NCBI RefSeq assembly: GCF_002221595.1
Contig: NZ_NHMP01000004.1
Coordinates: 248,001-312,000, forward strand
Direction: 5' to 3'
Origin: Turicimonas muris
GTDB lineage: Bacteria; Pseudomonadota; Gammaproteobacteria; Burkholderiales; Burkholderiaceae_F
Length of the DNA stretch: 64,000 bases
Shown: positions 11,785-22,797 of the stretch, piece after piece
Numbering within the stretch: position 1 is the stretch's first letter
How the letters are laid out: every line of letters starts with the position of its first letter
Notes under the pieces: model-generated
Told to the model about the DNA's origin: nothing
Databases searched by the model: none
What the model saw: only the letters and a program-made list of their open reading frames with translations
Program-made: the position numbers and the translations under genes

Positions 11785-11860
11785 GGGTTGTTAGCTCAGT
11801 TGGTAGAGCAGTGGACTTTTAATCCATTGGTCGCAGGTTCGAGTCCTGCACAGCCCACCA
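11785..11860 (+). tRNA. tRNA-Lys (anticodon TTT)
   Basis: A 76-nt cloverleaf with encoded CCA. The acceptor pairs GGGTTGT with ACAGCCC, the D-arm is TAGCTCAGTTGGTAGAGC, the anticodon loop is CTTTTAA, and the T-loop is GGTTCGAGTCC. It is a likely MnmA/MnmC substrate (U34). Confidence 0.97.
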
Positions 11861-11862
11861 GA

Positions 11863-11938
11863 GGGAGCATAGCTCAGTTGGTAGAGCAGCGGACTCTTAA
11901 TCCGTAGGTCCCGGGTTCGAATCCCTGTGCTCCCACCA
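11863..11938 (+). tRNA. tRNA-Lys (anticodon CTT)
   Basis: A second 76-nt lysine tRNA, 2 bp after the first. The acceptor pairs GGGAGCA with TGCTCCC, the anticodon loop is CTCTTAA, the T-loop is GGTTCGAATCC, and CCA is encoded. It is co-transcribed with tRNA-Lys(TTT). Confidence 0.97.
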
Positions 11939-11945
11939 GAATACC

Positions 11946-11980
11946 ACCCGTGACTCTTTCGAAGAGCGCGGGTTTTTCTT
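11946..11980 (+). terminator. Terminator of the tRNA-Lys operon
   Basis: A hairpin with outer arms ACCCG/CGGGT and inner CTCTTTCGAAGAG is followed by TTTTTCTTTT, starting 8 bp after the second tRNA. Confidence 0.85.
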
Positions 11981-12000
11981 TTCATTCGACCCATATCACC

Positions 12001-13899
12001 CCTGAACTTTACTAAACTAGATATATTTCTCAAAATCTTTTAGCCGGAGCGCCTAAACCCCTTATCCAGAGCCTGTTTTGGCCGTTTGAGGTTTAGTTTT
12101 ATCTTTATTTCTAGATATAATTCTTATATCTAGTGAGGCTCCCTATGTTTTTTCAAACTCTTTCAAATGAACTTCACCCACTGTTAGTTCAGAAAACCAA
12201 AAATGCTTCTTACGTTCTCAGGTGTAAAAATAAATGGGTAGACGGCGTTTCCAAACGCATTAGCAGCGAAACAGTGGGAAGAATTCTTGATGAAAGTACG
12301 GGTGCCTTTGAATTTAGCGAAAAATTTCTCAACAAGAATCCTCAGTTCCGTGGCCTGAACCTCTACTGGGATAAGGAACATTGCATTCTCACTTATCGAG
12401 ATGCTCCGGATCTCGGGCCTACCACTCAATCAAGGCTGAATGCCGGGGCCTCCTATTTGTTTTTAGAAATAGCAGAACAGGCAGGAATCCTCGAAGATCT
12501 CAAAACCGTCTGGGGAGAAAAAGCTGCCGATATTATTTCTCTAGCCATTTACTTTCTTGTTCACCCGCATCTTAATATCGACAGTTATTTTCATACAGCA
12601 GAACGGACTTTACTGCCTGGGCAGCCACTCAGCGCCAAACGTTGTACAGAGCTTTTTGAGTCAATAACTTTCGACGAGCGTAATCAATATCTTAAATTGC
12701 GGGCCGCTAGGAGTTCCGAAACTAACAACCCCAATTACTGGGCCTATGACACAACTTCTATTTCTTCTTACTCCGAAACGATACCGCTTGTTAAATACGG
12801 CTTTAACAAAGAGCACGATCCTTTGCCGCAGATGGTGCTTGGGATTCTGATGGATTGCAATACCGGGGAACCTATTGACTATCAACTGCTTAATGGAGCT
12901 ACGGCTGATGTATCCACTTTAAAAAAACTTTTTCTAGATCTCTCGAACATTGATGTCGATACAATCAATTTAATCCTTGATAGAGGATTTGATAGTTTTG
13001 AGAACCTGAAGCTGCTATATCTTCAGCATACGAATTTCATCCTGGCCGTTAAGTCCAACAGCACAATCATTGCCGATACATTTAAAGCAAATTGGAAAAC
13101 TCTAAAGGCTCGAAACCCTCTCGAATATATCCCGGAGTACGAATGCTTCGGAAGAGCATGCAAGGCGAACTATAACTTCCAATCCAAAGAGCTCGGTCAG
13201 ATTGATTCGGAGGTCTACGTTCATATGTTTTACAGCCCGGACAAGGCCGGGAGTGAACTTCATCGAGACGATTTAATCCTTCATGGATGTCTAGAAGAAA
13301 TTACCGAAAGAGAAAGAAAAAAGCGGATGAATAAGAAATTGGGCGACCCGAGTACTTCTTTAAAAGCGTACTTTAGGAGAGCAGAAAAAGGAAAATGGGA
13401 GCTTAAAAGTGAAGAATGGCTAAGCATTCAGCAAAATTCCGGTTTGTTCTACCTGGTATCAAATTCGATATCAAGTCCGCGAGAATGCCTGTTCAAATAC
13501 AGAAGCCGAGACGTTGCCGAAAAAGGCTTCAACAACTTTAAAGAACGATGTGCCGGAAGGAGAGCCAGATGTCAGGAACGTTCTTTACATGCCAAAATTT
13601 TTGTTATTTATCTAGCTGTGAGCTTGCGCATGATGCTTCGTCATCGTGTTAATCAGACAACAGAAGAAGAGTATCTTAGAACAGAGAAAATTCGGAACAT
13701 TCCAGATAACAGCGTGCCGGAGATGATCGACGACCTTAACTATGTTGGAGTGACAAAGTGCATGGGAACTTCGCCGGTGAAATATTTCTGGGATCAACTC
13801 ACTCCCAAGCAACGGGACTACTACAAATTTGCAAGAGTACCGCTGCCCGAGGGAACATTTGTCTTAGATAGTTTTATATCTAGGTAAGAAAAGTTCAGG
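12001..13899 (+). mobile_element. Complete IS1634-family insertion sequence, 1.9 kb
   Basis: The ends are imperfect inverted repeats: reading inward from 12001 and from 13899, 24 of the first 30 bases match, both starting CCTGAACTTT and sharing CTAGATATA. The 6-bp sequence ATCACC lies directly outside both ends (11995-12000 and 13900-13905) and is the likely target duplication. A single transposase fills the interior. It inserted just beyond the tRNA-Lys terminator, so probably without harm to a gene. Its intact ends and frame suggest recent, possibly active transposition. Confidence 0.85.
12145..13887 (+). CDS. IS1634-family DDE transposase
   Basis: About 580 residues. A DDE-type catalytic core with the long insertion typical of IS4/IS1634 enzymes: first Asp in NYWAYDTTSISSYSE, second Asp in LILDRGFDSFENLK, and the C-terminal YREK-like motif YRSRDVAEKGFNNFK carrying Glu. 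The ATG at 12145 has GAGG upstream; an in-frame GTG at 12133 is also possible. A TATAAT lies within the palindrome at 12111-12133 (CTAGATATAA/TTATATCTAG), which may position its promoter. It is not closely similar to the second IS1634-type transposase at 23.1 kb. Confidence 0.85.
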   Translation: MFFQTLSNELHPLLVQKTKNASYVLRCKNKWVDGVSKRISSETVGRILDESTGAFEFSEKFLNKNPQFRGLNLYWDKEHCILTYRDAPDLGPTTQSRLNAGASYLFLEIAEQAGILEDLKTVWGEKAADIISLAIYFLVHPHLNIDSYFHTAERTLLPGQPLSAKRCTELFESITFDERNQYLKLRAARSSETNNPNYWAYDTTSISSYSETIPLVKYGFNKEHDPLPQMVLGILMDCNTGEPIDYQLLNGATADVSTLKKLFLDLSNIDVDTINLILDRGFDSFENLKLLYLQHTNFILAVKSNSTIIADTFKANWKTLKARNPLEYIPEYECFGRACKANYNFQSKELGQIDSEVYVHMFYSPDKAGSELHRDDLILHGCLEEITERERKKRMNKKLGDPSTSLKAYFRRAEKGKWELKSEEWLSIQQNSGLFYLVSNSISSPRECLFKYRSRDVAEKGFNNFKERCAGRRARCQERSLHAKIFVIYLAVSLRMMLRHRVNQTTEEEYLRTEKIRNIPDNSVPEMIDDLNYVGVTKCMGTSPVKYFWDQLTPKQRDYYKFARVPLPEGTFVLDSFISR

Positions 13900-15432: not shown

Positions 15433-16017
15433 CTAACCTTTGTTCTTGCCAAAGTACAAGTGCTTATTACGAGATTTTCCGGAAATCTTTGTCGGAGTAA
15501 CCTCCCAAACAGTAATGCCCTTTCCACCCTTATCGAAATATGCTTCAGCAGCCTTTGCACCGGCCTCCGGAGCATGGATCTTACAAATTTCTAATTGAAT
15601 TTTTCTGAGTTCTTGTGGATCAGTGATCTCCTTGGCCGTGCCGGCAACAACCACAGAAGCGAAATCAACGGCGAATTCCTTTTGATTGATATCATCTTTA
15701 CCGATGAAGCACAAAGAAACTCTTTCATTTTGTCGCAGGTTGTCTACCTTTCTTCCGCCTGCTTTAGAACAATGGAAATAGAGTTTGCCATTCAAAAGGA
15801 TAGGTGTGACAGGAACGCCGTATGGAGTTCCGGAGTTGTCTGTTGTGGAAAGCACGGCATGAGGAGTATGACGGATAAGATAAAAGCATTCTTCTTCTGT
15901 TAATTGCCGATCCTTGCGACGCATTTCTCTTTCCGTACTTGTTCCAGAGGCAAATGCGAAAGGTGCAACAGAAGCAGCAAAGCTAGATACGAGGATTGAA
16001 CGACGTAAGAGGTTCAT
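15433..16017 (-). CDS. Exported pyridoxamine 5'-phosphate oxidase-like (NimA-type) flavoprotein
   Basis: 194 residues. An N-terminal export signal (NLLRRSILVSSFAAS, ending near FASG) has adjacent arginines and could be Tat- or Sec-dependent. The mature part has the split-barrel FMN fold of the PNPOx/NimA group: MRRKDRQLTEEECFYLI, PHAVLSTTDNSGTPYGVPV, and YFHCSKAGGRKVDNL. NimA-like proteins reduce nitroimidazoles or other small oxidants; export is unusual for the group. I chose the ATG at 16017 because AAAGGAGA precedes it. It forms a pair with the tautomerase gene and lies next to a divergent-in-function AraC regulator on the same strand. Confidence 0.78.
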   Translation of the reverse strand: MNLLRRSILVSSFAASVAPFAFASGTSTEREMRRKDRQLTEEECFYLIRHTPHAVLSTTDNSGTPYGVPVTPILLNGKLYFHCSKAGGRKVDNLRQNERVSLCFIGKDDINQKEFAVDFASVVVAGTAKEITDPQELRKIQLEICKIHAPEAGAKAAEAYFDKGGKGITVWEVTPTKISGKSRNKHLYFGKNKG

Positions 16018-16100
16018 TTTTTTCTCCTTTAGAGTTAAGCCATTAAGACCAAGCCTTTCGTGTTCAGCTTGTGAGCTCACTCTATTGGAATTTAGAAAAA

Positions 16101-17033
16101 TCAGCTTTCTAAGGTTGATATTTCCGGCACTGCATTTAGCACATTAGGAAGCCTTTTTGCTTTCCACTCTGTGGCACTCACACCAAAATGACTTTTGAAA
16201 GAACGGCAAAAATTTTCAAAACTTCCAAATCCGCACAGCTCTGAAATCTCGCGGACAGAACGTTTTTGATAGCGGTGTTCGCGGAGTTTTCTTGCTGCCT
16301 CAGAAAGCCGAAGCTCCTTTAAACGTGCCATTACAGTGGTTCCGCTCGGGCTATAAATGTTGTTTAATTGTCGGCTAGAAATGGAAAAGAATGAGGCAAC
16401 CTCCGTGGCCGTCAGTTCCTTATTATTAAGATTTTCTTTGAGATAGCTCTCAACCTTTTGCCTCAATATCTCATGTTTTGTGAGTGTCCCGTCTAATCCT
16501 TTGGCCTGACGACGAAATTGAGCAATAAGCGGCATAAGAATGTAAAGAAAGCCGATACACATGCTTTCGAGCTCAAGGGGATGTGCCTTCTTTAACATCC
16601 GTCGAACGGCCCTCAGTGTATCTAAGCTTGTTTTCCCTAAGTTGTTTTGGAGAGAAATACGCACTCCTAACAGTTGAGATGGCCGATATACCATGTGGCT
16701 CGACCAAACAGAAGACGAGATCAGCAGAAGATAAAAATTACTGTCTTCCACAAAATTGAGACAAAAGTCTTCACTAGGATCTACAAAAAAGACCGACTGG
16801 CTGGGCACCTCTCTTTGATTACCTTTCTGCTCGAGAAAAAAGTGTCCCTGCTGCAAAAAGATAAATGCTAACTGGTAGCTGTCATCCTTTTGAAAGACGC
16901 AAGAGCCTTTTACATCCTGGGCATAAAGCAGAAGAGAATTGTCGGACTGCGACATTTCTGACTGAGGTAAGTCGAGCAAATCCATTGAATTACGCGGGGC
17001 GTCCCTTATTTCACCCGGAAATTTTCCATTCAT
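16101..17033 (-). CDS. AraC family transcriptional regulator
   Basis: 310 residues: an N-terminal cupin-like ligand-sensing domain (about residues 30-180) and a C-terminal double HTH (about 205-295), with LTATEVASFFSISSRQLNNIY and the second helix-turn-helix region ending in FGSFENFCRSFKSHFGVSATEW (cited as separate short motifs SISSRQLNN and FENFCRSFKSHFG). It reads into the exported flavoprotein and tautomerase genes 83 bp downstream, which are plausible targets. The start overlaps the iscB stop as ATGA, with GGAG eight bases upstream that belongs to the end of the IscB element. So the insertion may have replaced its original promoter or N-terminus. Confidence 0.8.
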   Translation of the reverse strand: MNGKFPGEIRDAPRNSMDLLDLPQSEMSQSDNSLLLYAQDVKGSCVFQKDDSYQLAFIFLQQGHFFLEQKGNQREVPSQSVFFVDPSEDFCLNFVEDSNFYLLLISSSVWSSHMVYRPSQLLGVRISLQNNLGKTSLDTLRAVRRMLKKAHPLELESMCIGFLYILMPLIAQFRRQAKGLDGTLTKHEILRQKVESYLKENLNNKELTATEVASFFSISSRQLNNIYSPSGTTVMARLKELRLSEAARKLREHRYQKRSVREISELCGFGSFENFCRSFKSHFGVSATEWKAKRLPNVLNAVPEISTLES

Positions 17034-18385
17034 CTAACTTCTCCAAGGATACCTCGGGTTTCAACCCGAGGAGGAATTGGACAGCTTTTCCAACTGTAGG
17101 AATAGCCATCCGAGTGTGTAATTAATCTGCAATAGCGATAGGAAATACCTTGTATGGTTTGGCCGGAGGTTTGAAGATTGAAAGATCCTGTTTTACGGAC
17201 AGCAACCTTTCCCACACACACGCCTTTTTTCTTGCCTTTCGGGATAATCGCTTTGACCATATCTCCGGTTGAAAATCCGTAAACTTTCTTCTGCCTCATG
17301 CAGATTCCTCGTGGGAATCCATACTTATCAGTTCTCGTTCTTTGATAGGCTCCACGGCCACAACATTTAATGTTCAGAACATTGAGGTTTCTCCAATTTG
17401 TCACTGATGGAACATTGCCCACACAGAGTGCATCTAGCCAATGCGCTTTTGGAATACCGAATTTTTTGCGGTTAAACTTAGTTAAAGCTCCTGAACCAAC
17501 TTCAAAGGGAAAACCAGTTGATTTCAGTTTGTTAAACAGTTTCCAACGGGTGGCATTAACAGAAGCTGCGTCTTTAAGCGGTTGTTTTAACTGATTCTTG
17601 ATTTGCCGCAGAACTTCCGGCTTGTCTTTCAGAAACTCCTCAATGCTCCTTGAGCCTTTCTTCTGATTGCATTGAACACAAGCTAAAACGAGATTGCTGA
17701 CTCTGTTAGAGCCGCCTTTGGATTTTGGTATTACATGATCGATATTAAGTGGGACATTGTCTGCTCCGCAGTAGATGCACTTGCGGCCGAATTTTTCAAG
17801 CAGATACTCCCGGAGTTCGTAACCAGTCAGCTCTCCTTGTTGATACTCAATCCCTTCAATTTTCGAGTTCTGGGTAAGCTGCGTATCGAACTTTACAAGC
17901 TCTTGGCTGATTCTTTCAACAGGGGTTATCTTGCGCAATCGAGAAACCCAAGAAAGAATGCTGTCTGGTCGATGCTGCAGGGAAGGAGCAAGCCACCCCT
18001 CTGCTCTCCTGCGGTTCAGGAACCGGGGTGAGCGGTAACGGAGATTACGGCTTCTTCGGCTGCGTCTCAAACAACGCCTCTTGTGGAGTGCATTGCGAAT
18101 CTGCTGACCTCGATGCTGAAGATTGATAAAGTACAAAGCATGATGCTCTTTGTTTTTCTCTTCCCGCACTAGAGCAATACCTGTCTCTTTGGAACCCGGA
18201 TCAATCTTGATAAGCATCGGTTGGACAGATGAGTTTTCCAGTTCACGATCCGTTAGACGGATTGTAAACGGGAAAACCTTATGGACCCGTGCCCGTCCTT
18301 TTTTCAGGAGTTTCCTTGCTCTTGCCGGATGACAGGGCATCAGGCGCCGGCCTTTCCTATCTAATACAAATACGAATGTCGTCAT
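17030..18385 (-). CDS. iscB: IscB: RNA-guided RuvC-HNH nuclease of the OMEGA type
   Basis: 451 residues with full IscB architecture. The N-terminal PLMP-type domain (VFVLDRKGRRLMPCHPARA) is followed by RuvC-I with Asp62 in KIDPGSKETG and an Arg-rich bridge helix at about 99-127 (RRCLRRSRRSRNLRYR). RuvC-II has Glu162 (ISQELVKFD). The HNH domain spans about 200-245, with Cys203/206 and Cys236/239 as a zinc site and catalytic His217 in NIDHVIP. RuvC-III has Asp318 (HWLDAL). The C-terminal domain contains GDMVKAIIPKGKKKG. All nuclease residues appear intact. IscB is the ancestor group of Cas9; it uses an upstream omega RNA to cut matching DNA, probably preserving the element after excision. The gene ends in TGA inside the element's right-end hairpin zone and overlaps the AraC start. 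No tnpA is nearby. Confidence 0.95.
   Translation of the reverse strand: MTTFVFVLDRKGRRLMPCHPARARKLLKKGRARVHKVFPFTIRLTDRELENSSVQPMLIKIDPGSKETGIALVREEKNKEHHALYFINLQHRGQQIRNALHKRRCLRRSRRSRNLRYRSPRFLNRRRAEGWLAPSLQHRPDSILSWVSRLRKITPVERISQELVKFDTQLTQNSKIEGIEYQQGELTGYELREYLLEKFGRKCIYCGADNVPLNIDHVIPKSKGGSNRVSNLVLACVQCNQKKGSRSIEEFLKDKPEVLRQIKNQLKQPLKDAASVNATRWKLFNKLKSTGFPFEVGSGALTKFNRKKFGIPKAHWLDALCVGNVPSVTNWRNLNVLNIKCCGRGAYQRTRTDKYGFPRGICMRQKKVYGFSTGDMVKAIIPKGKKKGVCVGKVAVRKTGSFNLQTSGQTIQGISYRYCRLITHSDGYSYSWKSCPIPPRVETRGILGEVR
17052..17071 (-). repeat. Right-end subterminal hairpin of the IscB element
   Basis: A perfect 9-bp palindrome, CCTCGGGTT then AACCCGAGG with a 2-base loop, lies inside the last codons of iscB. 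The left end of the element has a similar CCTCGGG-type hairpin at 18637-18656. Paired subterminal hairpins are what TnpA (Y1 HUH transposase) of IS200/IS605 elements recognises. Confidence 0.7.
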
Positions 18386-18667
18386 AAATAAATTACCTTA
18401 CGGTTACTGGACTTGTCTTTCGACTTGTCCGTGGCAAACACCTTTCGGTGTTGTTCCCCTCGCCAATGTTGCAGAGCGGCGTTTTGTTCCGAACCGTTTC
18501 GTACTTACCCATAGCTTGTCTGCTTTCGGAACTTTCAGGGTCCGGAGCTGAGGAAGCACCCCGGAGTGAGTCTTGAACCTCTTTGCAACGTAGTCAGCAT
18601 TGCTGACTGAAGCTGGTCAACCAGACTTTTGCAAGCCTCGGGCTTTTAGCCCGGGGTAGTTGACCAA
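18386..18667 (-). ncRNA. Omega RNA (HEARO-type) of IscB
   Basis: About 280 nt of non-coding, strongly structured DNA directly 5' of iscB, the standard location. On the minus strand I can pair: 5' arm 18666-18659 (TGGTCAAC) with GTTGACCA near 18620; hairpin 18639-18653 (CGGGCT/AGCCCG); hairpin 18593-18607 (GTCAGC/GCTGAC); long-range stem 18579-18589 with 18468-18476 (CTCTTTGCAAC/GTTGCAGAG); stem 18486-18493 with 18535-18542 (GTTCCGAA/TTCGGAAC); hairpin 18437-18452 (AACACC/GGTGTT); and hairpin 18409-18430 with an internal loop. This density of long-range and local pairing, plus its position, supports the call. Family knowledge: IscB needs this RNA for guided cleavage. Confidence 0.85.
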
Positions 18668-18686
18668 ATTGATTATTTCAGAGATC
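18667..18686 (-). other. Predicted guide segment of the omega RNA
   Basis: In IscB systems the guide is the 16-20 nt immediately 5' of the scaffold and comes from DNA flanking the element's left end. Reading the minus strand just before the first scaffold stem gives TCTCTGAAATAATCAATT. It would match the element's own empty insertion site. The boundary may be off by a few bases. Confidence 0.6.
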
Positions 18687-18998: not shown

Positions 18999-20780
18999 AT
19001 GAACACGGCATTTCTCAAACAGAAGTTACTTCTTCTTTGCTTTCTATTCCTTGCTTCTATTACACAAGCAAAAGAAGAAATCACTATTGGCCTCATTGAT
19101 ACGTTTGATCCCGACTTTTATCTCGAGACTTTTGTACCAACTGTCGAGCATTTGCAAAAAGAGTTGCCTAACTACAAACTAAAAATCATTGAGATATCAC
19201 CGAAAAACATCATTGAAGAGACTGAAAAACTTAAACCTCAATTCCTTATAGCGTCAGCGGGCGACTTCTCTACCTTAATGAGCTTAAAAGGAGCGCAACA
19301 GATAGCTACAGTAAAACGTCCTCAAGCCATCAACGCTGAAAAAGCCGTTTTTGCAGCTTTTGTCGTCAAAAATGATCGGAAAGACCTTCAGACTCTCCGA
19401 GATCTAGAAAATAAAACCGCAGCTGCGGCTACCGAAACTGACTTTGAAGGTTGGCTCGTTCCTCTCGGCGAAATTGCCGATGCCGGATTCAATCCGGAAA
19501 AATTCTTCAAAAATGTTAAGTTCACGGAACATCAGTTCCCGGATGTCCTGACTCATCTAAAAGTCGGAAATGTCGACGTGGGAATTTTTGGGCCATGCCA
19601 ATTAGAGCGATTGGCAGAAAACGGAGAAATTAATAAATCAGATTTTCGAGTGATAGGACTTAAGGATCCGAAAGAGTTATGCGCACGGTCCACGAAAATG
19701 TATCCGGACGTCGTGTTTTGTTCGATGGACGGCGCACCCTCTCAAGCAGTGAAAGCCATTACGCTTTCCCTGCTCTCTTTTCCTCCTCAGCAAAATAATT
19801 TTGAATGGATTCCGGCAAGCAGTTTTTATCAGGTTTTTGAATTGCTGAAATCTTTAAAGCTCGGTCCGTACCGGCATTTAAGAGAAACTACCGTTAAAGA
19901 CTTTCTGGCTGCGCATAAACTCGAAATCGGGCTCTTTTTTGCGCTGGTAATTGCCGTGCTGATTCACATCGTCCGCGTCAATATGCTGGTTCGCCTTCGG
20001 ACGGAAGAACTTAAAGCTTCTATTGCCGAACAGCATTTAATCGAGTCACGAGCATTGGAAAACCGCGAACGGCTCGAGATGCTGGAAAAAAGCCGCGTAA
20101 TCTCTCAGCTAAGCTCCATGTTTGCTCACGAAGTTAAACAGCCAATCACCAATATCCTTTATTACACCAGCGGTTTGAAAGTTCTTCTTGAAAAACTAAA
20201 AATAAAAGATAACCAAGTAGAAATGGTACTGGATAAGCTCAGAGAACAAGCCCTGCGGACCGCCGATATTGTTGACCACGTAAGAAGCTACGCCAAACAC
20301 AGACCGTCTAAAGAAGTTGAGTTCGATTTAATCCCAACCGTCCTGCGTGCTTTGAAAAGTATTAAAGAGCAAGAAAGAAAAGGCGTAGAAGTTAGAACTG
20401 TTTTTCCTAGCGAAAGCATTTCAGCTAAGGGAGATCCCTTTGAGATTGAATTGGTAGTTCTTAACCTTCTCAAGAATGCCCTTAGTGCCGTCAAGGACGT
20501 ATCATCCCCGGAAGTCACTATTACGATTACAGAAAATGAAGATAAGATCCGCGTTCATATTGCCGACAACGGCCCTGCTCTTTCTGATGAACAGTTTGAA
20601 AAACTAGGGAAGCCCATCCAAAGCAAGAAATCCGACGGATTAGGAATCGGCCTCTCAATTGCTCTTAGTATCATCGAAAGCCACGGAGGCCACTTGACCT
20701 TTTCCAGAAACCAACCGAACGGCTTGATCGTAAGCTTCTCTGTAGAATACGCTGCGAATAAGGAGAACCACAATGGCTAA
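18999..20780 (+). CDS. TtrS-like sensor histidine kinase with periplasmic PhnD-type binding domain
   Basis: 593 residues. A signal/anchor segment (KLLLLCFLFLASITQA) precedes a periplasmic substrate-binding domain of the PhnD/TtrS type (about residues 25-295, EITIGLIDTFDPDFY at its start). A membrane helix lies near 309-329 (IGLFFALVIAVLIHIV). Then come a dimerisation/phosphoacceptor H-box FAHEVKQPITNILYY with the phosphorylated His, N-box LLKNALSAV, G1 ADNGPAL and G2 GLGIGLSIAL of the HATPase domain. TtrS senses tetrathionate in Salmonella; the ligand here could be another electron acceptor, given the flavoproteins downstream. It overlaps the response regulator by 8 bp. The ATG at 18999 lacks a clear SD. 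Confidence 0.85.
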   Translation: MNTAFLKQKLLLLCFLFLASITQAKEEITIGLIDTFDPDFYLETFVPTVEHLQKELPNYKLKIIEISPKNIIEETEKLKPQFLIASAGDFSTLMSLKGAQQIATVKRPQAINAEKAVFAAFVVKNDRKDLQTLRDLENKTAAAATETDFEGWLVPLGEIADAGFNPEKFFKNVKFTEHQFPDVLTHLKVGNVDVGIFGPCQLERLAENGEINKSDFRVIGLKDPKELCARSTKMYPDVVFCSMDGAPSQAVKAITLSLLSFPPQQNNFEWIPASSFYQVFELLKSLKLGPYRHLRETTVKDFLAAHKLEIGLFFALVIAVLIHIVRVNMLVRLRTEELKASIAEQHLIESRALENRERLEMLEKSRVISQLSSMFAHEVKQPITNILYYTSGLKVLLEKLKIKDNQVEMVLDKLREQALRTADIVDHVRSYAKHRPSKEVEFDLIPTVLRALKSIKEQERKGVEVRTVFPSESISAKGDPFEIELVVLNLLKNALSAVKDVSSPEVTITITENEDKIRVHIADNGPALSDEQFEKLGKPIQSKKSDGLGIGLSIALSIIESHGGHLTFSRNQPNGLIVSFSVEYAANKENHNG

Positions 20781-21396
20781 CCTAACACCTCTCGTCCGTA
20801 TCGTTGACGATGATCCCACTATTTGTGACTCTCAGTCTTTCTTTTTGCAGTTAGCCGGCTGGCAAACCGTCACCTACCAGGATCCCGTAACCTTTTTGGA
20901 ACGAGACGATTGGGATCGGCCGGGATGCATTATCTTGGATGTGAGAATGCCTTCTCTCTCTGGATTGGAAGTGCAGCAGGAATTGAATAAACGCGGCGTT
21001 GATTTGCCGATCATTTTTCTCTCGGCCCACGGTGACATTGAGATGGCGATGAATTGCGTTGAGCAAGGAGCTTTCAATTTTCTAGTTAAACCTCCTATCC
21101 CAGAGAAGCTTAAGGATTTAGTTGAGAAAGCCATCAAACTGAATAAGTCTCAGAGAAAAATAAAAAAGGAAACCGAAGAACTACAGAAACTTTTTAGTCA
21201 GCTGACGTCGACCGAGCAAATGGTAGCCCGTCAGGTAGCTAAAGGTTTAACCAACAAAATGATCGGCGAAGTATTGGATATGTCGGAAAGGACCGTTCAA
21301 TCACATCGGAGCAAAGTTTTTGCAAAGCTGGACGTTGGAAATGCAGTAGAACTTTTCCAATTCCTTAGCGACATGGATAATTCCTCAAACCTGTAA
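20773..21396 (+). CDS. TtrR-like response regulator (REC plus LuxR-type HTH)
   Basis: 207 residues. The receiver domain (about 5-120) has acidic pocket DDDP near the N-terminus, phospho-acceptor Asp in CIILDVRMPSLSG, Ser/Thr switch in FLSAHGD and Lys in FLVKPP. The C-terminal LuxR-type HTH is LTSTEQMVARQVAKGLTNKM then MSERTVQSHRSKVFAKL. It belongs to the FixJ/TtrR group and is the cognate partner of the overlapping kinase. It ends 12 bp before the flavoprotein gene, so that operon is its most likely target. The palindrome at 22861 is a candidate site. Confidence 0.88.
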   Translation: MANLTPLVRIVDDDPTICDSQSFFLQLAGWQTVTYQDPVTFLERDDWDRPGCIILDVRMPSLSGLEVQQELNKRGVDLPIIFLSAHGDIEMAMNCVEQGAFNFLVKPPIPEKLKDLVEKAIKLNKSQRKIKKETEELQKLFSQLTSTEQMVARQVAKGLTNKMIGEVLDMSERTVQSHRSKVFAKLDVGNAVELFQFLSDMDNSSNL

Positions 21397-21408
21397 CCGA
21401 ACAAAAAG

Positions 21409-22797
21409 ATGAAACGCCGCACACTAAACTCTTTACTTGCCTTCTTCAGCTTAGGTTTCGGTTTTGCCCCTTCTATTGTTGAAGCCGCTGTTACTTCCTG
21501 CGATGTGCTTGTAGTTGGCTCAGGCGCTGCCGGTCTTTCGGCTGCTTTAGAAGCTGCTGACGCCGGATGCAAAGTTATCCTTTTAGAAAAAGAAGCCTTC
21601 GTCGGCGGAGATACTCTGCGTTCAGGCGGGTTTTACAATGCTCCCGATCCAAAAATCCAAGAGCTCATTCATGTGACCGATAGTCCGGAATTCTTCTATC
21701 AACAACTTGAAGAATCAGCCCATGGAAAGGGCGATCCGGCCTTACGCAAAATACTTGCTTATAACTCAGTCGACACCTTGGAGTGGCTGAAGAAACAAGG
21801 TGTGGTCTTTGAAGAAAGAGTATTTCAAATTTACGGTTCCAAACACCCGAGAAGCCACAAACCAAGCCTCATCAGCGGCACTTCATATATCCAAAAATTA
21901 TCTGAAGCCTGCCTTCAACGCGGGGTTAAGATAATGACAGGTTCCTACTTCTCGGACTTTATTGTTGAAGGTTCAAATGTTATCGGCGCTTTTGTAGAAC
22001 ACAAAGGCATGCGCCAGCAGATTTATGCCAAAACAATTGTATTGGCGGCGGGCGGATTCGGAAATAATCCGGAAATGGTCAAACGGTATGTTCCAAGCCT
22101 TAAATTCGTATTTTCTGATTCTCGCGGGCACGGAAGTGTCCTGCAGAAGGCAATTGATCTCGGCTTAAAGGCGGAAAACATGGATATCGTGGAATGCGTC
22201 CCGGAAGGATCGTTTCTTGATCAGTTCTCGGCCCGTATTTATGTTTTTGTGAAGAACACGTTTTTCGTTAATGAAAATGGAGAACGATTCGTTGATGAAG
22301 CCGCTCAGCGCAATGTCATCAGCAAAGCGCTTATCGCACAAGGCAACAAAAGATGCTACACAATCGTAGGATCGGAAAACATTTCGAAGATGGGCAAAGA
22401 CTTGAGAAAAAACCTTTACCGAGCCTATTTCGCCGGACAAGTTTGGAAGGCCAACACATTGGAAGAATTGTGCGAAATCATAAAAATTCCGTTTGCACCA
22501 ATCAAAGCCTATGTTGAACAGGGAGACAGCTCAAAAACTCCCTCAGAGCCTCCTTTCTGGGCTGTGCGAATGTATCCCTGGATTCACTATACTTTAGGCG
22601 GCCTCTCTATCAACACGGACGCCAACTGTCTTACCACATCCGGACAACCGATTCCCAATTTATTTGCCGCCGGTCAGATAACCGGGAACGTTCACGGAGA
22701 AAATAGACTCGGCGGATGCGGACTGACCGATGCTTTTGTTTTTGGAAGAATCGCGGGACAAAACGCAGCAAAATTTGCAAAATCCCTAGCACAGTAA
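21409..22797 (+). CDS. Exported fumarate reductase/urocanate reductase-type FAD flavoprotein
   Basis: 462 residues with a Sec-type signal peptide (RRTLNSLLAFFSLGFGFAPS, cleavage near VEA). The FAD-binding Rossmann motif is VVGSGAAGLSAALEAADAG. It keeps residues diagnostic of flavocytochrome c-type reductases: IHYTLGGLSI (substrate His) and TGNVHGENRLGGCGLTDAF (catalytic Arg in NRLGG). There is no haem domain in the chain, so electrons must come from a separate cytochrome, and the tetrahaem protein encoded at 26.6 kb is a candidate. It is the third gene of a unit with the TtrSR-like pair. Substrate is probably a small unsaturated acid such as fumarate, urocanate or an acrylate; this is an inference. 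Confidence 0.85.
   Translation: MKRRTLNSLLAFFSLGFGFAPSIVEAAVTSCDVLVVGSGAAGLSAALEAADAGCKVILLEKEAFVGGDTLRSGGFYNAPDPKIQELIHVTDSPEFFYQQLEESAHGKGDPALRKILAYNSVDTLEWLKKQGVVFEERVFQIYGSKHPRSHKPSLISGTSYIQKLSEACLQRGVKIMTGSYFSDFIVEGSNVIGAFVEHKGMRQQIYAKTIVLAAGGFGNNPEMVKRYVPSLKFVFSDSRGHGSVLQKAIDLGLKAENMDIVECVPEGSFLDQFSARIYVFVKNTFFVNENGERFVDEAAQRNVISKALIAQGNKRCYTIVGSENISKMGKDLRKNLYRAYFAGQVWKANTLEELCEIIKIPFAPIKAYVEQGDSSKTPSEPPFWAVRMYPWIHYTLGGLSINTDANCLTTSGQPIPNLFAAGQITGNVHGENRLGGCGLTDAFVFGRIAGQNAAKFAKSLAQ

What the first reader, a model, noticed from the sequence alone, without database searches (positions are those of the whole stretch)
17030..18686. Intact IscB RNA-guided nuclease with its own omega RNA
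Visible directly: a 451-residue protein with PLMP domain, Asp62/Glu162/Asp318 RuvC residues, an HNH insert with His217 and four zinc Cys, an Arg-rich bridge helix and, immediately upstream, about 280 nt of DNA whose minus strand folds into at least seven consistent stems including two long-range ones. Established knowledge: IscB with omega RNA (HEARO) is a programmable dsDNA nuclease related to Cas9. New here is a compact, apparently active locus in a gut betaproteobacterium.
Basis: partly seen in the sequence, partly recalled or inferred. Interest (0 to 1): 0.88.

Follow-up and report, generated by a model that had tools for sequence, protein, structure and literature searches.

The report
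IscB element sitting on start codon
A probable gut bacterium carries an intact, Cas9-related RNA-guided DNA cutter of a known family (IscB); the mobile element that holds it sits exactly on the start codon of a host gene, as many of its relatives do.

Summary
As protein and RNA it is an ordinary member of a known family, single-copy in its genome.

The unexpected part is its position. Comparison with relatives puts the element's far end at 17034. The next four bases, ATGA, are the inferred target-adjacent motif, the start codon of an araC-type gene and the stop codon of iscB. This recurs. In one related genome 17 of 21 IscB ends open an ORF of at least 100 codons at the junction ATG (24% of random ATGA sites do), against 2 of 8 ends of TnpA elements with nearly the same end. 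On plasmids 7 of 13 loci have an annotated start exactly there (background 4.7%). Empty sites confirm two cases.

Best reading: the guide is read from host DNA upstream, so the element gains from sitting behind a host promoter; it leaves the host ORF whole and hands translation back. Placement is shown; promoter use and hand-off are inferred. For the window itself no empty allele was found. Key older papers were not held, so priority is unproven.

The parts
18665..18680 (-). inferred guide (16 nt assumed; host DNA 5' of the element end)
   Evidence: similarity between copies stops at 18664; the 20 nt upstream of 18664 occur once in the own genome at up to 3 mismatches; the guide length is recalled
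18448..18664 (-). omega RNA scaffold (HEARO, RF02033); 18664 is the guide-side end of the element (GTCAAC)
   Evidence: cmscan 117 bits; 34 of 45 pairs with compensatory change over 19 sequences
17030..18385 (-). iscB, 451 aa: PLMP region, RuvC (D62, E162, H315, D318), HNH (H217, C203/C206/C236/C239), C-terminal region; stop codon TGA 17032-17030
17042..17081 (-). terminal two-tier hairpin of the far element end
   Evidence: same type of fold in 11 representative ends, the outer stem varies in sequence and stays paired
17041..17044 (-). GGAG, Shine-Dalgarno-like, 7 nt before the araC start codon, partly in the outer stem of the hairpin
   Evidence: sequence; function inferred
17030..17033 (-). 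ATGA: inferred target-adjacent motif, start codon of the araC-type gene (17033-17031) and stop codon of iscB (17032-17030)
   Evidence: the same junction motif in relatives
16101..17033 (-). target gene: AraC-family regulator, 310 aa
   Evidence: Pfam HTH_18; read across the junction, an in-frame stop lies 7 codons before its ATG

Best explanation
The locus is a compact IS200/IS605-like element that carries iscB and its omega RNA and no transposase. Shown: it is a full member of the IscB/HEARO family by protein and RNA, and by comparison with relatives its far end abuts the start codon of an araC-type gene. In one related genome and on plasmids IscB elements do this far more often than chance; further cases occur in the rest of the family and in other families of the order. 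Inferred: (1) a TnpA supplied in trans inserts the element directly 5' of ATGA/ATGG; (2) transcription from the host promoter reads the flank as the guide, then the omega RNA, then iscB; (3) the ribonucleoprotein cuts DNA that carries the guide sequence followed by ATGA, that is uninterrupted copies of the same start-codon site, and so favours copying of the element into empty alleles; (4) translation of the host gene is restored by a Shine-Dalgarno-like sequence in the element end and/or by ribosomes that end iscB at an overlapping ATGA or TGATG. Start-codon sites are the ones kept because there the 5'-end guide has a promoter and the host ORF is left whole.
For: IscB and HEARO membership. 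Ends and motif: 21 of 40 loci had both ends resolved by my patterns, 20 with ATGA and 1 with ATGG; in genome G011 33 ends against 0 for the reversed pattern (ATG is part of that pattern, the fourth base is not, and it is A in 30 of 30 loci). Start codon: of 30 G011 ends with loci, 21 adjoin iscB and 17 of these open an ORF of at least 100 codons; 8 adjoin tnpA and 2 do; 1 adjoins neither. Null: 24% of 1532 random ATGA sites in 220 kb; P 6e-8 for iscB, 0.6 for tnpA, Fisher 0.009. 10 of the 17 ORFs have a family profile starting within the first 12 residues. Rest of the family: of 18 resolved ends, window included, 14 open such an ORF; other families of the order 3 of 4 (25 loci given, 3 without an end; names). 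Plasmids: 7 of 13 annotated loci, P 7e-7, or 4e-4 if only sites outside CDS plus starts are allowed. Empty sites: ParB in two cyanobacterial plasmids, a nuclease-related gene in two Pseudomonas plasmids. TnpA elements with nearly the same end and a TCAT flank in G011. In 8 of 32 loci iscB stays open to the junction and stops on the junction ATG, at +4 or +1.
Against: No RNA, cleavage or expression data. For the window there is no empty allele: the one other genome of the genus gave no match to the araC protein or the DNA, and all other matches to the araC protein begin at its residue 29 or later, so its start rests on the ORF and the upstream in-frame stop. Exceptions: 4 of 21 iscB ends in G011; L059 lies inside a DUF362 gene; L002, L013, L086, L087 open short ORFs; 6 of 13 plasmid loci miss (two with unresolved ends, one 8 nt away). 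19 of 40 loci were unresolved; 7 of them were tried again and 6 of these gave an end; L004, L005, L006, L061 seem to have a different kind of end and stay unplaced. The Pseudomonas case carries one extra ATGA in its left flank compared with the empty sites. The other end of the G011 TnpA elements (TTTAC) differs from the guide-side end of the IscB elements, and in 2 of 6 the inner hairpin stem differs. No TnpA with matching ends was found in the own genome by the patterns used. Five of 32 ends show no Shine-Dalgarno-like string. Promoter-like sites upstream are within chance: 2 found, 0.9 +/- 0.9 expected.
Confidence: 0.72

Rival explanations
1. Pure tolerance: TnpA inserts at any ATGA/TCAT, most insertions are lost because they break genes, and those between ribosome-binding site and start codon survive because the IscB element end supplies initiation. 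No benefit from the host promoter is involved.
For: In the second subfamily AAGGAG lies just before the shared hairpin in IscB ends but not in the G011 TnpA ends. Genes usually essential (signal peptidase I, a LolC-like permease, an Obg GTPase; the second name and the essentiality are recalled) are among the targets.
Against: If only sites outside genes plus starts could survive, 16% would be start-like in G011, well below what is seen (8 of 9 full-length copies pass the start-like test, P 3e-6). So intergenic insertions must be disfavoured too, which tolerance alone does not explain.
Confidence: 0.3
2. Ordinary IscB insertion whose start-codon position in the window is chance.
For: Only one copy in this genome. 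In the window start-like sites are 3.0% of all ATGA/ATGG sites and 32% of those outside genes or at starts.
Against: The same placement recurs in G011, in other family members, in other families of the order and on plasmids.
Confidence: 0.1
3. Domesticated regulator: IscB kept as an RNA-guided controller of the araC-type gene or of its targets, not as a mobile element.
For: Single copy in tight arrangement with a regulator; guide flank unique in the genome.
Against: Nuclease residues intact; transposon-like ends; decayed pieces of the element elsewhere in the genome; no close relative of the araC gene in 67 family genomes (best other match 29% identity).
Confidence: 0.06

Closest known systems
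IscB with omega RNA (OMEGA systems; OgeuIscB, TbaIscB; AwaIscB recalled)
   Same: RRXRR/PLMP region, RuvC split by HNH, HEARO RNA directly 5' of the gene, guide from flanking DNA, motif on the far side
   Different: 451 aa. Nearest named relatives found: an uncultured Duodenibacillus assembly at 62% and plasmid copies at about 57-58%, Allochromatium tepidum among them. The start-codon placement was not seen in the papers I could reach
HEARO RNA (RF02033)
   Same: full-length hit of 117 bits
   Different: nothing of note. I recall that the original description already placed HEARO elements before ATGA or GTGA; that paper was not held
IsrB
   Same: related omega RNA; motifs NTGA, NTG and NTGG were measured for IsrBs (PMC9581776, passages), which fits ATGA/ATGG here
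   Different: IsrB lacks the HNH domain (recalled); this protein has it
IS200/IS605 TnpA-TnpB elements
   Same: in G011 nearly the same far end with a TCAT/ATGA junction
   Different: their ends do not favour start codons (2 of 8) and their other end differs; a TnpB guide lies 3' of its gene (recalled)
IStrons
   Same: mobile elements that limit harm to the host gene (PMC4227781, start of abstract, passages)
   Different: IStrons splice out of the RNA; here the element stays and initiation would be handed over

Membership tests
IscB | IscB-specific protein profile over its curated cut-off | tested here: met
   NF040563 450.7 bits, cut-off 175
IscB | intact RuvC and HNH catalytic residues | tested here: met
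IscB | HEARO/omega RNA immediately 5' of the gene, same strand | tested here: met
IscB | guide-side end and a target-adjacent motif at the far end | tested here: met
   ends from copies and from empty sites of relatives; for the window by alignment only
IscB | RNA-guided DNA cleavage | not testable with these tools
   needs protein and RNA
IS200/IS605-like mobile element | subterminal hairpins, insertion at a fixed tetranucleotide without target duplication | tested here: met
   exact empty site for the Trichormus plasmid; the Pseudomonas case has one extra ATGA; not tested for the window itself
IS200/IS605-like mobile element | Y1 transposase with matching ends, in cis or trans | tested here: inconclusive
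   TnpA elements with nearly the same far end but another second end in G011, 6 of 8 loci given; 10 Y1 matches in the own genome, none with matching ends by the patterns used
start-codon-targeted element (as proposed here) | far end abuts a host start codon more often than chance | tested here: met
start-codon-targeted element (as proposed here) | host promoter drives guide and iscB; host translation restored | not testable with these tools
   needs RNA and protein data

The most novel reading that the evidence does not exclude
IscB elements live on start codons. Their motif ATGA/ATGG is the initiation codon plus the next base, so the guide is the stretch just upstream of a gene. The host promoter makes the guide RNA, the host ORF stays whole, and the element end or the iscB stop codon restarts translation. 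This would explain why IscB, whose guide is at the 5' end, has this habit while TnpA-TnpB elements with nearly the same far end do not.
Probability: 0.45. Interest if true: 0.75.

Novelty: new member of a known kind. Interest (0 to 1): 0.55.

Why it matters
The protein and RNA are one more IscB. The placement bears on open questions: how an RNA whose guide lies outside the element gets transcribed, why some IscB motifs read ATGA, and how such elements avoid harming the host. Because TnpA-TnpB elements with nearly the same end in the same genome do not share the bias, the question can be tested directly.

Tried and rejected
Empty site for the window locus: not found in the only other genome of the genus. 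A TnpA partner in the own genome: 10 Y1 matches; the stretches fetched around them carry none of the element-end patterns I used. In G063 and G058 one TnpA locus each gave no matching end either. Stand-alone omega RNAs in the own genome: L043 has no HEARO hit at E 0.5 or better and L045 has 28 bits, below cut-off; both are decayed fragments. Relatives in viral contigs: none confirmed. Promoters: the consensus scan was uninformative. Orientation of host genes at the non-start insertions: too few and mixed. A Shine-Dalgarno sequence as the single rule: rejected, because 5 of 32 ends show no such string. Structure prediction was not run; profile and alignment evidence was taken as enough.

Rows dropped before counts and corrections; 40 loci given, 21 resolved; 25 loci given; 11 family loci outside G011 (L004-L009, L011, L060, L061, L084, L085) and L071 of G011 were not given, because their ends had not been resolved. 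In one search the pattern for L086 caught another ATG than; both open short ORFs. Plasmids: 15 of 95 matching plasmid records and 1 of 213 phage records were opened; L107 (no annotation), L112 (same locus as L111) and L119 (phage, end unresolved, though its next CDS starts at an ATGA) were left out of the 13. In one search the stop position for L104 was not computed properly and is not used. The criterion of 100 codons counts internal Met codons too, hence the null of 24% (30% if ATGA and ATGG are pooled, P 2e-6); the nine full-length G011 copies with both ends resolved pass a stricter start-like test in 8 of 9. Three of the 33 G011 ends have no locus and were not classified. Of the 17 long ORFs, 7 have no profile near the N-terminus: L131 and L153 have no family hit, L137, L140, L141, L144, L148 have hits further in.

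Literature: seven answered searches, of which I saw only the listed rows (1 to 25 of up to 1,763 papers), showed no paper that I could see to report start-codon insertion of IscB. Read: passages and section 9 of PMC9755519; passages of PMC13180657 (its one 'start codon' concerns iscB's own start), PMC9581776, PMC12286853 and PMC4227781 (its 'IscB' matches are other IS names); outline and abstract of PMC6728339. Four papers sought by DOI (from recall: an IscB paper, the HEARO paper, the ISC transposon paper, a transposon-nuclease paper) are not held, so no claim of priority is made.

Full report
The observation. The ORF at 17030-18385(-) is a complete IscB with relatives of solved structure. 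Against OgeuIscB all four RuvC residues and the HNH histidine are in place, and they are invariant or nearly so in 47 aligned IscBs. The RNA upstream scores 117 bits against HEARO over the whole model, and 34 of 45 pairs predicted from 19 related sequences show compensatory change. The own genome has one IscB and one HEARO over cut-off. Named relatives: an uncultured Duodenibacillus assembly at 62% and plasmid copies up to 57-58%.

The ends. Copies of the same subfamily in other family members align from GTCAA on the guide side to a hairpin followed by ...ATGA on the other. For the window this gives 18664 and 17034, an element of 1631 bp. The next bases, ATGA, belong to the target. They are at once the inferred target-adjacent motif, the start codon of the araC-type gene and the stop codon of iscB. 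Read across the junction, an in-frame stop lies 7 codons before that ATG. The 20 nt of guide-side flank occur nowhere else in the genome at up to 3 mismatches. Of 40 loci tried, 21 had both ends resolved. L004, L005, L006 and L061, of the same subfamily, seem to have ends of another kind and were not placed.

The start-codon pattern. In genome G011 a search for the element end found 33 places, and the reversed control pattern found none. The pattern includes ATG but not the fourth base, which is A in 30 of the 30 ends with loci. Of these 30, 21 adjoin iscB, 8 adjoin a TnpA gene in the opposite orientation and 1 adjoins neither. From the junction ATG an ORF of at least 100 codons opens in 17 of 21 iscB ends and 2 of 8 TnpA ends. 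Downstream proteins of the iscB group include signal peptidase I, a HAD hydrolase, a class-V aminotransferase, an NtrC-type regulator, a flavodoxin, a radical SAM activase-like protein, a heavy-metal ATPase and an AI-2E-type permease; in 10 of the 17 a profile starts within the first 12 residues. In 220 kb of G011 sequence from 11 stretches 24% of ATGA sites open such an ORF, 2.0% are start-like, and 15.6% of sites outside genes or at starts are start-like. The iscB count has P 6e-8; the TnpA count fits chance (P 0.6); the two differ at P 0.009.

Other genomes. In the rest of the family 14 of 18 resolved ends (window included) open an ORF of at least 100 codons, among them NikR, an HTH regulator, an aconitase-C (LeuD-like), a Usp and an SSF protein; L059 is inside a DUF362 gene. 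No null was computed for these genomes. Five ends of one subtype (L080, L082, L083, L087, L089) read ATGG, as do L059 and the plasmid locus L116; the others seen read ATGA. In other families of the order 3 of 4 resolved ends open such an ORF: an Obg GTPase, a sugar epimerase and a DUF488 protein. Three of the 25 loci given to one search yielded no end. On plasmids with independent annotation 7 of 13 loci have a CDS starting exactly at the junction; background 36 of 762 ATGA/ATGG sites.

Empty sites. Plasmids of Aulosira and Scytonema carry the ParA-ParB region of the Trichormus plasmid without the element. Their ParB begins at exactly the ATGA where the element sits, an overlap with the end of ParA. 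P. putida pDK1 and Pseudomonas pCP7-41 carry the P. veronii region without it, and the nuclease-related gene begins at the same ATGA; there the occupied allele has one extra ATGA on the left. A diverged Polaromonas plasmid has sequence like the start of the L106 target gene without the element, though no CDS is annotated there.

Transposase. In G011 six TnpA elements of about 1750 bp have nearly the same far end and a TCAT flank; in two of them the inner hairpin stem has another sequence, and their second end (TTTAC) is not that of the IscB elements. Trans-mobilisation is thus likely but not proven. In the own genome no such partner was found. Decayed fragments L043 and L045 suggest that the family moved in this genome before.

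How it probably works. The guide is the host DNA just 5' of the omega RNA, so the RNA must be read from outside; a site between promoter and start codon provides that. The host ORF is left whole. Initiation can be restored by a Shine-Dalgarno-like stretch in the end (GGAG, 7 nt before the ATG in the window) or by ribosomes finishing iscB at an overlapping ATGA or TGATG, which 8 of 32 loci have (L001, L107, L110 at +4; L093, L095, L106, L108, L109 at +1; in L093, L107 and L110 no long or annotated gene starts there). Overlaps of this kind coupled translation strictly in 13 of 14 tested pairs in another study (PMC6728339, abstract). Apart from the counts, this paragraph is inference from sequence.

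What is known. IscB, HEARO and IS605 elements are known kinds, and IsrB proteins have NTGA-type motifs (PMC9581776, passages). I recall that HEARO elements were described as lying before ATGA or GTGA and that one IscB has an ATGA motif; neither source was held. The start-codon bias, the contrast with TnpA elements and the stop-on-start overlap were not in anything I could read.

Noticed in passing
L043 (own genome C14:235755-235853) and L045 (C13:328696-328751): Decayed pieces of the same element: 99 bp of the omega RNA at 94%, and a guide-side end stub at 89%.
   Followed up: partly
L080, L082, L083, L087, L089: An element subtype with a different end hairpin has ATGG instead of ATGA at the junction in the five copies seen, so the motif may change together with the end.
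   Followed up: no
L004, L005, L006, L061: IscBs of the window's subfamily (about 60% identical) whose flanks show another kind of end; their insertion sites were not placed.
   Followed up: no
G011 (L128-L157): One genome carries 33 copies of the element end, 21 of the 30 with loci beside iscB.
   Followed up: yes
L170 and L171, about 1070; L118:1769-3371: In the cyanobacterial plasmids ParA and ParB overlap by ATGA, and the IscB element sits exactly in that overlap in Trichormus.
   Followed up: yes
L106:4862-5104 and from 5243: A second HEARO (83.2 bits) and a second iscB lie about 1.5 kb downstream on the same Polaromonas plasmid.
   Followed up: no
window 15433-16080: Protein of the pyridoxamine-phosphate-oxidase type, below cut-off similar to NimABCDEF nitroimidazole reductases, directly after the araC-type gene.
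   Followed up: no
window 18999-22797: Two-component pair similar below cut-off to TtrS and to FixJ/TtrR, and a flavocytochrome c, divergent from the element.
   Followed up: no
window 11785-13887: Two tRNA-Lys genes followed by an IS1634-family transposase.
   Followed up: no
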